Of a stretch of DNA of 47,781 nucleotides, positions 43,393 to 47,781 are shown piece after piece. Source of the DNA: Desulfuromonadales bacterium (lineage in GTDB: Bacteria > Desulfobacterota > Desulfuromonadia > Geobacterales > Pseudopelobacteraceae); assembly GCA_016650295.1 (NCBI GenBank), contig JAENWA010000025.1, forward strand, positions 1 to 47,781, given 5' to 3'. Within the stretch, counting starts at the first letter, position 1; each line of letters begins with the position of its first letter. A model generated the notes under the pieces. That model saw only the letters and a program-made list of their open reading frames with translations. It did no database searches and was not told the origin of the DNA. The translations under genes were made by a program, and so were the position numbers.

Positions 43393-43740
43393 TTATTTCT
43401 TCAGTTTTCGGCCCTGTTTCACAAGTTGTTTTTCCTCGGACTTGTTCAACCAGGCCAGCCCCTTCTCCTGCGCCACACCACTCATGCCCTGCAGCCGGCG
43501 AATCCCGGCATTGATCACCTCGCCGGTCCGCGTATAGTGCATCTCATCGGCCCACCTGGCGGCTCCGCTGTCGCCAAGGGCCAGGTAGGGATAATCGGGA
43601 CTCACGGCCCCCAGTTCGCAAAAGCAGAAATGGGTCATAACGGCAAACTTCGCCTCATCGGGGAAGCCGACAATGCTGTCGAGGAGGTTGGTTTCTTTCA
43701 GCATGTTGGCCAATGTGAGATGGGCGTATGCTCCGGGCAT
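43393..43740 (-). CDS. truncated zinc-phospholipase C-like N-terminal domain (115 aa)
   Basis: Starts MPGAYAHLTLANML at 43740 behind AAAGGAGCCCTCAC. MPGAYAHxTL is the characteristic opening of zinc-dependent phospholipase C-like proteins, whose N-terminal amine and His bind zinc. The family is usually over 250 residues; here the frame ends after KSEEKQLVKQGRKLKK. The central DSGAARWADEMHYTRTGEVI keeps another likely His, but the C-terminal half with the remaining zinc ligands is missing. It is probably a remnant, like the neighbouring fragment at 42975-43312. It could still be expressed given its intact start. Confidence 0.55.
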   Translation of the reverse strand: MPGAYAHLTLANMLKETNLLDSIVGFPDEAKFAVMTHFCFCELGAVSPDYPYLALGDSGAARWADEMHYTRTGEVINAGIRRLQGMSGVAQEKGLAWLNKSEEKQLVKQGRKLKK

Positions 43741-44011: not shown

Positions 44012-46354
44012 TCACGCTATGAAACTTTGCCTGAATTCACAAAGCTTTATGTCAAGAAGCGCATCGATATCCTGTAAATATTCTTTTAGTCCCTTGCGCA
44101 ATTTTATGATTTCTTCTTCTGAGACATACTTTGAATTTACATAAAGAAAGATCTTAGACTCTTTGAATTCAATATCGTAGTAATTCTCAGGTTTTATATT
44201 TGTAAGGTTTGCTATGCCAGGATTATAATTTGTATCTCGCCCCCAATTCTGCAACGAGTCGGCAAGAACAGCAATATAGGTAAACGGGCTTTTGTGAAAA
44301 TTGTTTTTGTATTCACGAAATTCACTTTTTTGTGCGTACGATGGATAATAGTTATGATAGAAAATTGCGGGAAAACAGATCGAGGCCTGGAATTTGATTT
44401 CTTGTATGCGGGAATTGATGTCCTTGTTATCTTTAATAAAAAACATGAGGTTAAGCAGATCATTATCTAAATCAGTATTCTCTTGAATCTCTTTCAATAA
44501 TTGGAAATTAAACTCTACGGTGGCGAGATAATACAAAGCAGATACAAACCCATGATCGTTCTTCCACGGCGGATTATAATCATTGACACGTTCTATGTAT
44601 TCATCAACTTCATCTATCACCTTTTCCTTAACTAGAATTGTATCTTTAAGCTTATTGTATAGTGTCAATACCTGAAGCGGTGTGGTTTCGAAATCAAATT
44701 CTAGAAATGCAGTAACCAAGATGCATTTGCTCAAAGTCTGTGAAAAAAGGGCATCAAGATTCGCTTCAAAACTGTGTAATAGATTGTGAAGTGACTCGTT
44801 AGCCGCTATGTCACGCCGAATTTTAGGAAGCAGATCACTTCCGAACCCTTCATGTATTGAACGAAATGTTTTTTCTTTTGAAATCCATTCACGCATAACC
44901 CCATAAATTTCTTTCTCATCACATTGTTTTTTTGGATCTTTCTTCGTTCTTGTATTTATATCTTTAGTAATTTTTTTTGCTAATTTTTCGAAGTGCAGAC
45001 TCTTGAAAATGAGTTCTCTCGTAATTGAATCGTTCGGTGAGTTCAATACTTCTTTAAGGTTAAGATCCCCTGTCACGATCTGATCTATAAATGATGCATT
45101 AAAAGCGTCAGTAAACTCATCAATAATTGAAGGGCCTAATCTTTTGTATGATTCAGATGCACTACAGAATAAATCCGTCTGCTCCTTAGGACTGAAAAAA
45201 TCATTAGCTGTCATGTACTCCTTATGAAATAACGTTACAAAAGCCATTGAATTCATATTGTTACAGATTTCAGCGTTACTTGTGTAAAAATCTTTAAACT
45301 TCTCAGTGGCAATTAACTCATTTGTAAGTGCATCCAAATTAGCCACACCATTGGCACCAAATAGTCGTTGTACTAGCTCCTCAAGAATGCCTCTAACATT
45401 GCCGTAAAAGAAATATCGAGTTGTGGAAGATACAACTTTTGTCCGCTTTCTATTTGCAGCCTTGGATATATAGTTGTCATAGGTTTCTACATTAATAATT
45501 TTAGAAGTTTCATTATCTTCAACGATTACAAAGATATTCTTGGCATTTATAAAGGCACTTAACAGTTTTACGCCTAAATCGCTGGACACATTTGAATATG
45601 AATTGGCCATTAACAGATTATTTATTTCATCTACAGAGAAGCTGGCTTTGATAATGTTTTCCTCATCTTTATCAATATACTTGTAGATTCTGTCTCCAAA
45701 ATTCAAACTGTCTTGCTCTTTAATTAATGCAATAATAGATATAAGGTTTGACACTAGCGCTACGGAAAACTTACTTTTGAGCCCAGCGTGATAATTCTTA
45801 TAGGCTCCAACCACATGCTGAAGAATGTACGGTTTAAGATCATCATCAGATAACTCTTCAATTGGATAACCTATGTCGTGGTAAATAGAAAACTGACTCC
45901 ATAACTCTGAAAAAATTGCATACGAATTCCTGTCAGTATGGACAGAAAACTGGCGTTTTTTGTCCTTAATTTCTTTGTCTATCCTACTATTGAAAACAAC
46001 TGTTTTAGAATAAAGCAGTACTCCAATGAAATATAAATAAATTATGTGCCTTACGTGATCTCGTGAATATCGCGCTTTTTTCTTCAATGATGACTGTTGT
46101 TCCTTTTGTAGTGTAAGAATTATTCGATGCAGGAACGATGGTGGAGAGTTAGTGTTTTCGAATGAAATCAGATCTATGAGTTTTTTGGTATTTTCAACTT
46201 GTTCATCAGACGAGCTAGTCAAAAACTCCTGAAAGTATGTTTTCAGAGGAAACAGATAATCCATAGCATCCAGATACTTTTGCTGACTGATAGTTTTCGG
46301 TTTGTCTAACAAATCATCATAAAAAACCTTCCTAATATTACTATTTGCTCTCAT
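44012..46354 (-). CDS. large HD-superfamily hydrolase-like protein, unknown system
   Basis: 780 aa starting at ATG 46354, chosen because GGAGGACGTTCCT precedes it; an upstream GTG is less likely. The residues fit an HD hydrolase: DHVRH (His100/His103), YHDIGYP (His159-Asp160), NDHGFVSALYY (His601), IFYHNY (His667) and VLADSLQNWGRD (Asp699). About 440 residues of helical, charged sequence separate the HD pair from the later ligands, an unusual insertion. No membrane helix is visible. It overlaps the 192-aa gene by 14 bases. Base use is AT-rich, unlike the central window. HD enzymes cleave phosphoesters of nucleotides; a defence or second-messenger role is possible but not shown. Confidence 0.75.
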   Translation of the reverse strand: MRANSNIRKVFYDDLLDKPKTISQQKYLDAMDYLFPLKTYFQEFLTSSSDEQVENTKKLIDLISFENTNSPPSFLHRIILTLQKEQQSSLKKKARYSRDHVRHIIYLYFIGVLLYSKTVVFNSRIDKEIKDKKRQFSVHTDRNSYAIFSELWSQFSIYHDIGYPIEELSDDDLKPYILQHVVGAYKNYHAGLKSKFSVALVSNLISIIALIKEQDSLNFGDRIYKYIDKDEENIIKASFSVDEINNLLMANSYSNVSSDLGVKLLSAFINAKNIFVIVEDNETSKIINVETYDNYISKAANRKRTKVVSSTTRYFFYGNVRGILEELVQRLFGANGVANLDALTNELIATEKFKDFYTSNAEICNNMNSMAFVTLFHKEYMTANDFFSPKEQTDLFCSASESYKRLGPSIIDEFTDAFNASFIDQIVTGDLNLKEVLNSPNDSITRELIFKSLHFEKLAKKITKDINTRTKKDPKKQCDEKEIYGVMREWISKEKTFRSIHEGFGSDLLPKIRRDIAANESLHNLLHSFEANLDALFSQTLSKCILVTAFLEFDFETTPLQVLTLYNKLKDTILVKEKVIDEVDEYIERVNDYNPPWKNDHGFVSALYYLATVEFNFQLLKEIQENTDLDNDLLNLMFFIKDNKDINSRIQEIKFQASICFPAIFYHNYYPSYAQKSEFREYKNNFHKSPFTYIAVLADSLQNWGRDTNYNPGIANLTNIKPENYYDIEFKESKIFLYVNSKYVSEEEIIKLRKGLKEYLQDIDALLDIKLCEFRQSFIA

Positions 46355-46919
46355 AGGAACGTCCTCCACAGTATGTATCTTTTACATATTGCGAGAAAAT
46401 CCAAAAGTTTTCTGAAAGATCTTTATCTTTTACCTCCCTGTTAATCATGTTTTCATAAAACAATGTCCGTAAAGTATTTATTCTATATGCGTGTCCGTTA
46501 AGGCTACAGCGTCTCATTTCCTGGTAAGTATTCAAATACAATGACCCAGACAACATAGCCTCATTGCTGGTATTTTCTAACGTCACTATTTGCTTACGTA
46601 TAAGTTGCTTAAGTAGATCGACTGGCTTTGCAGCGTTAAAAACATCAATCAAACTTCCTAAAATAGCCGCATTGATATTTATTTTATACTTTGATTGATA
46701 TTTCTTTATCACAGCAGGTGATGGGGATTGCAACGGTTCATTGTAGTACTTTGGAGTGATGCAAAAACGCATGTCTGCCACAACAAATGTTAACACGTTG
46801 TTCATATTCGGGAATGCATTAACAGCGTAATGCGCATTTCTTTTTACTGGAAGATTATGAACAATACGAAATCCTTCTCTTATTCTGGAATGACGAGGTA
46901 TTACATTGAACGGCCACAT
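46341..46919 (-). CDS. 192-aa protein of unknown family, coupled to the HD gene
   Basis: Starts at ATG 46919 behind TTGGGAGGAAGT. The N-terminal 70 residues (MWPFNVIPRHSRIREGFRIVHNLPVKRNAHYAV ... LTFVVADMRFCITPKYY) look beta-rich; the rest is helical with basic patches (VDLLKQLIRKQIVTLEN; HAYRINTLRTLFYENMINREVKD). No known domain. The stop lies inside the start region of the HD gene, a 14-base overlap that implies translational coupling and a shared complex or pathway. It is AT-rich like its partner, and both point away from the IS630 remnant. Confidence 0.65.
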   Translation of the reverse strand: MWPFNVIPRHSRIREGFRIVHNLPVKRNAHYAVNAFPNMNNVLTFVVADMRFCITPKYYNEPLQSPSPAVIKKYQSKYKININAAILGSLIDVFNAAKPVDLLKQLIRKQIVTLENTSNEAMLSGSLYLNTYQEMRRCSLNGHAYRINTLRTLFYENMINREVKDKDLSENFWIFSQYVKDTYCGGRSYESK

Positions 46920-47082: not shown

Positions 47083-47514
47083 TTAGCGTTTTTTCCATAC
47101 CCATTCATCCTGCTGAACTACACACGTCCTCCTTGAATGTCCGACATATCTACCTTCTAGAGAACTGCCATCAACTATTCTTAATTCAAATGCTCCAAAA
47201 TAAGCATGCGGATCATTTTTGTCATACCACTCTCCAATTAAGTAGGAGCTCTGGATTCTTGCAAAAAAACAGTAGATTATTCCTTTTGCGTAGAATTCAG
47301 CATAACAGTACCGTCCAAATTGGCGTATTTTCGTATGACTGTGACGATCGAGGTCCTTTTGAAAGTCGCCGCTACCAGCAGCAGCCCAAATCTGTTCCCA
47401 ATCTCCTGAAATATCGGGAGGTTTATCTCTCATGATTCCACGAATGGGCAACCACCAAAAGTATTTCACGAATACTTGAGCGAGTTTGAAGTCTAACAGT
47501 GTCTTAACGAGCAA
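47083..47514 (-). CDS. membrane-anchored beta-domain protein, 5' end lost
   Basis: From the TTG at 47514 the product has a short N-terminal stretch, then GDWEQIWAAAGSGDFQKD, HSHTKIRQFGRYCYAEF, SYLIGEWYDKNDPHAYFGAFELRIVDGSSLEGRYVGHSR and VWKKR. This looks like a small lipocalin-like or cell-envelope beta domain common in accessory genes; its function is unknown. The open frame continues upstream to about 47563 as a hydrophobic helix (IAGVIATGLAAPVAILLV), which has no start codon before running into the IS630 end. The natural N-terminus was probably removed by the IS insertion. It may be unexpressed. Confidence 0.5.
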   Translation of the reverse strand: MLVKTLLDFKLAQVFVKYFWWLPIRGIMRDKPPDISGDWEQIWAAAGSGDFQKDLDRHSHTKIRQFGRYCYAEFYAKGIIYCFFARIQSSYLIGEWYDKNDPHAYFGAFELRIVDGSSLEGRYVGHSRRTCVVQQDEWVWKKR

Positions 47515-47571
47515 GATAGCAACAGGTGCAGCTAGACCTGTAGCTATTACTCCGGCAATTAAACAGCTGAA

Positions 47572-47781
47572 TCAAGCTGCATAGGTAATGCATGGATGTT
47601 TGAAAAACTTCTTTGTCTTGAGACGATCGTTTTGCAGGGTTCGCATATGCTTCCTGGCTTTTGATTCAAGCTGATTTGCATTCTGAGCTCGCTCGCCTGA
47701 ATGGACCCGGCCTTTGAGACTATTATTGAGATATTCATCCGGATTCAGCTCCGGCGAGTAGGATGGAAGGTAGAATACCTC
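47572..47781 (-). mobile_element. IS630-family transposase, C-terminal part (runs off window)
   Basis: The minus strand from the window edge encodes 69 residues to the TGA at 47572: VFYLPSYSPELNPDEYLNNSLKG and on to HPCITYAA. LPxYSPxLNPxE is the last catalytic motif (Glu of DDE) of IS630/Tc1-like transposases. The rest of the element, including the other catalytic Asps and the far terminal repeat, lies beyond the window. The nearer end should fall within 47540-47572, at the edge of the beta-domain gene. Confidence 0.9.

What the first reader, a model, noticed from the sequence alone, without database searches (positions are those of the whole stretch)
44012..46919. Coupled pair: 192-aa unknown plus giant HD protein with a 440-residue insertion, in an AT-rich island next to IS630
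Seen: a complete HD ligand set (His100/103, His159-Asp160, His601, His667, Asp699) split by about 440 residues, a 14-base overlap with a 192-aa gene of no known family, AT-rich composition and an adjacent IS630 remnant. HD nucleotide hydrolases act in several anti-phage systems. Inferred: a two-component accessory or defence system not matching a system I know.
Basis: partly seen in the sequence, partly recalled or inferred. Interest (0 to 1): 0.75.

Follow-up and report, generated by a model that had tools for sequence, protein, structure and literature searches.

The report
Split-domain HD enzyme and small partner
Two overlapping genes on a foreign, AT-rich patch of a bacterial chromosome encode a metal-dependent HD enzyme whose active site is split by a very long insertion, plus a small unknown partner; relatives with the same layout lie on other mobile DNA, so this is probably an undescribed bacterial defence module, though no function has been shown.

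Summary
The HD gene (44012-46354, 780 aa) and the 192-aa gene (46341-46919) overlap by 14 bases at 35-36% GC, against 57% for bases 1-43900, near an IS630 end. Neither protein matches a known family above chance. The HD protein belongs to an unnamed HD family (303 relatives in one genome scan) with members beside TIR proteins, an ABC-3C/Lamassu-like SMC gene, DRT1 and a HEC-01/AriA-like ATPase. Four long-insert proteins form one clade (95/95), each with a small same-strand gene just upstream. Insert and partner are both shared by the two closest members, and neither is detectably alike in the other two, hinting at a linked sensor cassette. Most likely a mobile conflict module with a binuclear-metal nucleotide phosphohydrolase or phosphodiesterase; anti-phage activity and substrate are inferred, not shown. 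A 5'-truncated gene upstream weakly resembles S-2TM-beta membrane effectors. New variant of a known kind.

The parts
44012..46354 (-). Long-insert HD protein, 780 aa, ATG at 46354 (a GTG at 46369 would give 785 aa)
45839..46069 (-). HD core, first half (residues 96-172): DHxxH (H100, H103), G111, W152, H159-D160, G162-Y163, E166
   Evidence: model pLDDT 79-89 by block over residues 101-160
44570..45838 (-). Insertion (residues 173-595), alike between L013 and L014 but with no detectable likeness to those of the window or G1110; mostly low model confidence
44015..44569 (-). HD core, second half (D600-H601-G602, H667-N668, D699-x-x-Q702-x-W704-x-R706) and a C-terminal beta-beta-alpha-beta element
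46341..46919 (-). 192-aa partner gene of no known family, GGGAGG before its ATG
46341..46354 (-). 14-base overlap of the two genes
47083..47544 (-). 5'-truncated gene resembling S-2TM-beta (CBASS '2TM') effectors, cut by the IS630 end; possible former third member
   Evidence: weak, E 0.006-0.018
47545..47781 (-). IS630-type transposase end (DDE_3), runs off the contig; second copy opens contig C13

Best explanation
A mobile two-gene conflict module, probably anti-phage. The large protein is an enzyme of a so far unnamed HD-superfamily family. Its H-HD-H-H-D ligand set should hold two metal ions, as in HD-GYP phosphodiesterases, and hydrolyse a phosphodiester or phosphoanhydride bond of a nucleotide or nucleotide signal. 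The long insertion between the two halves of the active site and the small upstream protein form the control part: they hold the enzyme inactive and release it when they sense infection. The HD enzyme is then the effector that removes a needed nucleotide. Shown here: the conserved ligands, the clade, the recurring gene layout, and the sharing of both insert and partner within one pair of loci; suggested by the model: one HD fold. Inferred: two metals, nucleotide substrate, effector rather than eraser role, partner as sensor, phage as trigger.
For: All seven ligand residues plus G111, W152, Y163, Q702, W704 and R706 are kept in 18 of 18 relatives, and no covered ligand position is substituted in 108 frames. 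In the VIA-align list the first nine rows are PPX/GppA HD-like domains (six), PDE4D (two, Z 7.7 and 7.5) and the bimetal HD-GYP PA4781 (Z 7.3), with aligned ranges starting at residues 2-72 and ending at 770-774, that is outside the insert on both sides (that PPX ends in an HD-like domain is recalled). Four long-insert members form one clade on 193 core columns with the insert left out, 95/95. All four have a small gene immediately upstream: overlap of 14 bases in the window, gaps of about 25-34 bases in L013 (by start codon), 79 in L014 and 13 in G1110. L013 and L014 share both partner (E 4e-29) and insert (E 1.7e-7). Contexts: IS630 and foreign GC in the window; C5 methylase and Api92-like protein (L013), integrase and DUF927 (L014), HNH and PD-(D/E)XK transposase (G1110). 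Family-wide: TIR-like ORF within four ORFs in 32 of 68 loci; HD gene 22 bases after an MComp1/LmuB-like SMC gene, another divergent to DRT1; another beside a HEC-01A/AriA-like ATPase; TIR, nucleotide kinase, radical SAM and HD genes in one direction near an integrase on a Parabacteroides plasmid.
Against: No function is tested. Foldseek found nothing at E <= 0.001; VIA Z under about 13 can be unspecific for helical models, and its ranges give only first and last residue (notes). The model's mean pLDDT is 56.6. The 192-aa protein has no relative, and its single-sequence model is worthless (pLDDT 35.4). Its likeness to the other partners is nil, so the 'same two-gene system' rests on layout. Inserts of the window and G1110 show no likeness to the L013/L014 inserts beyond shuffled controls. 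Some relatives sit among housekeeping genes (G625: thiamine genes and flagellin by sight) or in apparent two-component signalling. A remote hit, G722 (E 5e-17 to the family profile), lacks H100 and the QxWxR motif in the alignment.
Confidence: 0.5

Rival explanations
1. Signal eraser: the HD protein is a phosphodiesterase that destroys a cyclic or linear nucleotide messenger and so restrains or resets a membrane effector such as the neighbouring S-2TM-beta-like gene; the pair is what is left of a larger CBASS- or Panoptes-like operon cut by IS630.
For: H-HD-H-H-D set as in signalling phosphodiesterases (recalled), with PDE4D and HD-GYP among the first nine rows of the model search; receiver-HD relatives (by sight; one of 12 members hits response-regulator models); TIR neighbours in 32 of 68 loci; three of three PADLOC hits of the truncated upstream gene are 2TM effectors; S-2TM-beta proteins are two-pass membrane proteins with a nucleotide-binding barrel (PMC12657218, passages).
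Against: The 2TM likeness is weak (E 0.006-0.018) and covers about 30-40 residues; no such gene was noticed beside the three other long-insert members (by sight); no cyclase is visible, but the contig ends.
Confidence: 0.22
2. HD nuclease: the protein cuts DNA or RNA of an invader, like Cas3'' or Cas10 HD domains.
For: Cas3''-type HD domains also use more than one metal (recalled); one relative (L138) weakly hits PADLOC Cas3a2, E 0.029; some relatives neighbour SMC- or AAA-type genes, whose partners are often nucleases (the last part recalled).
Against: No nuclease family reached significance for the window protein; receiver and RyR architectures of relatives fit small-molecule signalling better.
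Confidence: 0.13
3. Accessory regulatory or metabolic pair picked up on mobile DNA, with no role in conflict.
For: Receiver-HD relatives in two genomes, one of the window's own genus (by sight); one relative among thiamine and flagellin genes.
Against: Patchy distribution: with the A4 profile the long form appeared only in the window's own genome among 147 relatives and among 395 genomes of its phylum (the samples overlap); the four long forms lie in mobile or restriction-type contexts; defence genes sit beside several short relatives.
Confidence: 0.15

Closest known systems
Clover (CloA dGTPase plus CloB nucleotidyltransferase)
   Same: Two-gene operon of an HD enzyme and a smaller partner; HD mutation abolishes defence there (PMC12265719, abstract and passages).
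   Different: CloA is a dNTPase with an HE dyad; CloB carries an NTase motif. The 192-aa protein has no [DE]h[DE] motif, and the HD protein has the further conserved histidines H601 and H667 and a huge insert.
Unnamed ~690-aa HD type with RyR-like C-terminus, often beside TIR proteins (found here, mostly gut Bacillota)
   Same: Same HD core signature, all ligands.
   Different: No long insert (spacing 104-113 in the three measured); RyR in the two members scanned, one of them under Pfam's cut-off; none in the window protein.
HD-GYP and cyclic-nucleotide phosphodiesterases
   Same: H-HD-H-H-D type ligand set (recalled, for HD-GYP); among the best rows of the model search.
   Different: No HHExxxGxGYP and no HDIGK; no sequence match in PDB or Pfam.
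ABC-3C / Lamassu-like operons with an HD third gene (L108)
   Same: A short HD relative follows the SMC-type gene by 22 bases.
   Different: No such gene was seen beside the window pair; the contig ends 860 bases upstream of it.

Membership tests
HD superfamily | H...HD...D metal-ligand order | tested here: met
   H103, H159-D160, D699 plus H100, H601, H667 in 18 of 18 rows; no substitution at covered positions in 108 frames
HD superfamily | HD helical fold uniting both motif halves | tested here: inconclusive
   First nine VIA rows are HD-superfamily folds, ranges from residues 2-72 to 770-774, Z 7.3-8.6; Foldseek alone no E <= 0.001
HD superfamily | Metal-dependent phosphohydrolase activity | not testable with these tools
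   needs purified protein
Clover | Partner is a nucleotidyltransferase with [DE]h[DE] motif | tested here: not met
   No such motif in the 192-aa protein, no Pfam match
Clover | Dgt-like dNTPase with HE dyad | tested here: inconclusive
   No Pfam, NCBIfam or PADLOC match to a dNTPase model; the structure search cannot exclude it
HD-GYP | HDIGK and HHExxxGxGYP | tested here: not met
   (motifs recalled)
RyR-type HD beside TIR | RyR domain at the C-terminus | tested here: not met
   No Pfam match in the window protein at E <= 1
RyR-type HD beside TIR | Neighbouring TIR protein | tested here: inconclusive
   None seen in the island; the contig ends at 47781
CBASS or Panoptes | CD-NTase or mCpol cyclase in the operon | tested here: inconclusive
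   None seen; the DNA beyond the IS630 was not found
CBASS or Panoptes | S-2TM-beta effector | tested here: inconclusive
   Truncated gene, three PADLOC 2TM hits at E 0.006-0.018, no Pfam match for the 143-aa frame

The most novel reading that the evidence does not exclude
A new type of bacterial immune module in which the sensor is a matched pair of parts: an insertion that splits the HD active site and a small partner gene, exchanged together while the catalytic core is kept, so that one nucleotide-hydrolysing core is fitted to different phage triggers. In the window it formerly worked with a nucleotide-gated S-2TM-beta membrane effector, before IS630 cut the operon.
Probability: 0.2. Interest if true: 0.8.

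Novelty: new variant of a known kind. Interest (0 to 1): 0.58.

Why it matters
HD nucleotide hydrolases are effectors of recently described bacterial immune systems such as Clover. Here is an HD family that the libraries used here hardly see: of the members scanned the best HD-type hits are weak (TIGR03401 E 0.0046 for one member; Cas3a2 E 0.029 for another; HDIG E 0.075 for the window). Yet 303 relatives were confirmed in one scan, and members sit beside TIR, DRT1, SMC-type and AAA-type defence genes. Its long-insert clade with a variable partner gives a testable design: does changing the insert and the partner change what the enzyme senses?

Tried and rejected
Single-protein searches of phages, plasmids, PDB, viral contigs and 395 genomes of the phylum gave no relative of the HD protein. 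The 192-aa protein gave none in viral contigs, 196 relatives' genomes or plasmids. First alignments across the insert were wrong and were dropped. A pattern search in 198 genomes gave eight matches, of which the window and L010 (cut at its N-terminus, not used further) belong to the family; the rest looked like chance frames. Searching with the A4 alignment or with the L013/L014 partner found nothing in viral contigs. L014's HD protein was not found in plasmids or phages, nor three short members in plasmids; a fourth short member had one plasmid hit. The truncated 2TM-like gene had no relative in plasmids, viral contigs or PDB sequences. Homology of the 192-aa protein to the L013/L014/G1110 partners was tested and not found. 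Homology of the inserts was found only between L013 and L014. The structure model of the 192-aa protein is unusable. Phrog_5272 (E 0.01) was treated as chance. The lists show no Cas3 and no Dgt, which is no evidence that these folds differ.

Rows and counts. The 18 proteins left out: G651, G670 and G722 (no DHxxH plus HDxGY frame in the loci of G670 and G722); eight hits (G898, G903, G946, G957, G1016, G1032, G1052, G1113); and all but three of the 74 cores. In one search five of the 79 frames had dropped out for lack of the DxxQxW pattern: three are cut by contig ends, and the two others (L050, L077) do hold LTDELQCWDR, which my pattern missed. One search put these and the unread hits back: the eight match the family profile, G722 does so remotely (E 5e-17, without H100 and QxWxR), G651 and G670 do not. 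The profile was built from the 18, so these E-values lean towards the family. 223 of the 303 relatives were never shown by the tool. The TIR count uses a profile of seven TIR segments, six of them from these same loci; 68 of the 80 loci had a usable HD frame, and the 640-frame control holds many spurious frames from few loci, so it is weak. In the tree several end branches are long, the window's among them.
Full report
WHAT IS THERE. On the minus strand the window ends in an AT-rich patch: a 192-aa gene (46341-46919) and an HD gene (44012-46354, 780 aa from the ATG) overlapping by 14 bases. GC is 0.345 (HD) and 0.363 (192 aa) against 0.574 for bases 1-43900. Upstream on the same strand lies a frame (47083-47544) cut at its 5' side by the end of an IS630-type transposase that runs off the contig. 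Neither gene of the pair matches a family above chance in Pfam, PADLOC, NCBIfam or PHROGs; the hits of the HD protein are weak (phrog_5272 E 0.01, of unknown function; HDIG E 0.075, at the HD motif).

RELATIVES. The protein alone finds nothing. A motif pattern found one cousin, L003, in a viral-contig collection. An alignment of the two first halves, scanned over one genome for each of 84,980 species (the tool's own figure), gave 303 confirmed relatives, of which 80 were kept. Of these most are proteins of about 650-760 aa, by title mostly gut Bacillota. The two best hits, L013 and L014, also carry a long insert, and each has a 237-253-aa gene directly upstream on the same strand. A profile of the three (A4) matched 4 of 395 genomes of the window's phylum including the window, 7 of 249 of L014's phylum including L014, 3 of 147 relatives of the window including itself, and 13 of 299 of L013's family including L013. 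One of the last, G1110, is a fourth long-insert protein (799 aa) with a 240-aa gene 13 bases upstream.

THE ACTIVE SITE. In 18 of 18 aligned members (four long, fourteen short) the residues H100, H103, H159, D160, H601, H667, D699 and also G111, W152, Y163, Q702, W704 and R706 do not vary; 16 of 16 in a second set that shares rows with it. How rows were chosen is told under Tried and rejected. Over 108 frames, some of them repeats or cut pieces, no covered ligand position is substituted; Q702, W704 and R706 differ in one remote frame, G722. The family signature is DHxxH ... W ... HDxGY ... H(G/A)xx(S/G) ... H ... DxxQxWxR. The spacing from the HD histidine to the next is 442, 381, 391 and 453 in the long forms and 71-138 in 13 of the 14 short forms (in one the pattern missed the HD). 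The AlphaFold model is confident only in parts of the core (block means 79-89 over residues 101-160, 45-87 over 601-700; much of the insert under 50; mean 56.6). VIA-align puts PPX/GppA HD-like domains, PDE4D and the bimetal HD-GYP PA4781 in its first nine rows, with aligned ranges that begin before and end after the insert. Foldseek on its own had no match at E <= 0.001, and Z of 7-8.6 for a helical model is suggestive rather than proof.

A CLADE WITH A MATCHED CASSETTE? On 193 core columns, insert left out, the four long-insert proteins form one group at 95/95; several end branches are long, the window's among them, so its place is less sure than the number suggests. L013 and L014 share partner (30% identity, E 4e-29) and insert (22%, E 1.7e-7). 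The window and G1110 share neither with them nor with each other at any convincing level (in one search one of five shuffled controls scored better than the window's real insert). This is what one expects if insert and partner change together; with four sequences it is a hint only, and fast divergence of both would look the same.

CONTEXT. Long forms: the window by IS630; L013 near a C5 methylase and an Api92-like protein; L014 near a phage-type integrase and DUF927; G1110 near an HNH gene and a PD-(D/E)XK transposase. Short forms: a TIR-like protein within four ORFs in 32 of 68 loci, against none of 640 frames of a weak control; Pfam confirms TIR in 6 of the 9 neighbours scanned. One HD gene lies 22 bases after a gene hitting MComp1 and LmuB, one is divergent to DRT1 (Drt1a E 0). 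One lies beside an ATPase hitting HEC-01A and AriA. Two HD proteins carry what looks like a receiver domain: G333, which follows a HATPase gene, and G396 of the window's own genus (by sight; one of the 12 members of A8 hits response-regulator models, while Pfam gave nothing for G396). On a Parabacteroides plasmid a relative (43% identity over 79% of a short member) follows TIR, hypothetical, nucleotide kinase and radical SAM genes in one direction, with an integrase nearby on the other strand; it is annotated only as hypothetical protein. Against this, G625 lies among thiamine and flagellin genes (by sight).

HOW IT PROBABLY WORKS. The histidines H601 and H667 beside H, HD and D make the ligand set that in known HD proteins goes with two metals and phosphodiester hydrolysis (recalled, not tested). 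TIR, receiver and RyR associations point to nucleotide signalling. I therefore think the HD protein hydrolyses a nucleotide or nucleotide signal, with insert plus partner as the switch. Whether it is the effector (as CloA in Clover, PMC12265719, abstract and passages read) or the eraser of a messenger for a membrane effector cannot be decided. The truncated neighbour leans weakly to the second: its only PADLOC hits are three 2TM effector models, E 0.006-0.018, and S-2TM-beta proteins are nucleotide-gated membrane effectors (PMC12657218, passages read).

NOVELTY. It is not Clover (no NTase motif in the partner), not HD-GYP (motifs absent) and not RyR-type. The paper searches that I made (listings and starts of abstracts seen) showed no description of this pair. 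They cover only the openly licensed part of the literature and used few terms, and a 2015 survey of nucleotide-centred conflict systems that I wanted to consult is not held. I call it a new variant of a known kind: an HD-based conflict module from an unnamed HD family.

Noticed in passing
window 47083-47544: 5'-truncated gene with a hydrophobic N-terminal stretch, weakly alike to CBASS 2TM effectors, cut by the IS630 end.
   Followed up: partly
L117 (G000 contig C13, bases 1-2000): A second copy of the same IS630 end opens contig C13, next to a RelA_SpoT-TPR protein that hits PADLOC candidate PDC-S33 (E 4.8e-10).
   Followed up: partly
L108 5094-11489: 579-aa gene, MComp1/LmuB-like SMC gene and short HD gene in a row: a possible ABC-3C or Lamassu-like system with an HD third gene.
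   Followed up: partly
L110 5509-10782: Short HD gene divergent to a DRT1 reverse transcriptase gene (PADLOC Drt1a, E 0).
   Followed up: no
L143 (NZ_OY725812.1 40346-59602): TIR, hypothetical, nucleotide kinase, radical SAM and HD genes in one direction near an integrase on a Parabacteroides distasonis plasmid; the HD gene is annotated as hypothetical protein.
   Followed up: partly
L138 2354-8836 (G396, window's own genus): 1642-aa gene of no Pfam or PADLOC family followed 12 bases on by an HD protein whose N-terminus looks like a receiver domain (by sight).
   Followed up: no
L137 3543-9798 (G1110): Partner, long-insert HD, a 692-aa protein with C-terminal hydrophobic stretches, and an HNH gene in one direction: perhaps a four-gene island.
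   Followed up: partly
L013 3387-7145: 1253-aa protein of no Pfam family, on the opposite strand beside the L013 pair; one weak PADLOC hit (E 0.007).
   Followed up: no
window 43393-43740: Short frame alike to the N-terminal part of zinc-dependent phospholipase C (PF00882, just under the cut-off), next to the island's edge.
   Followed up: no
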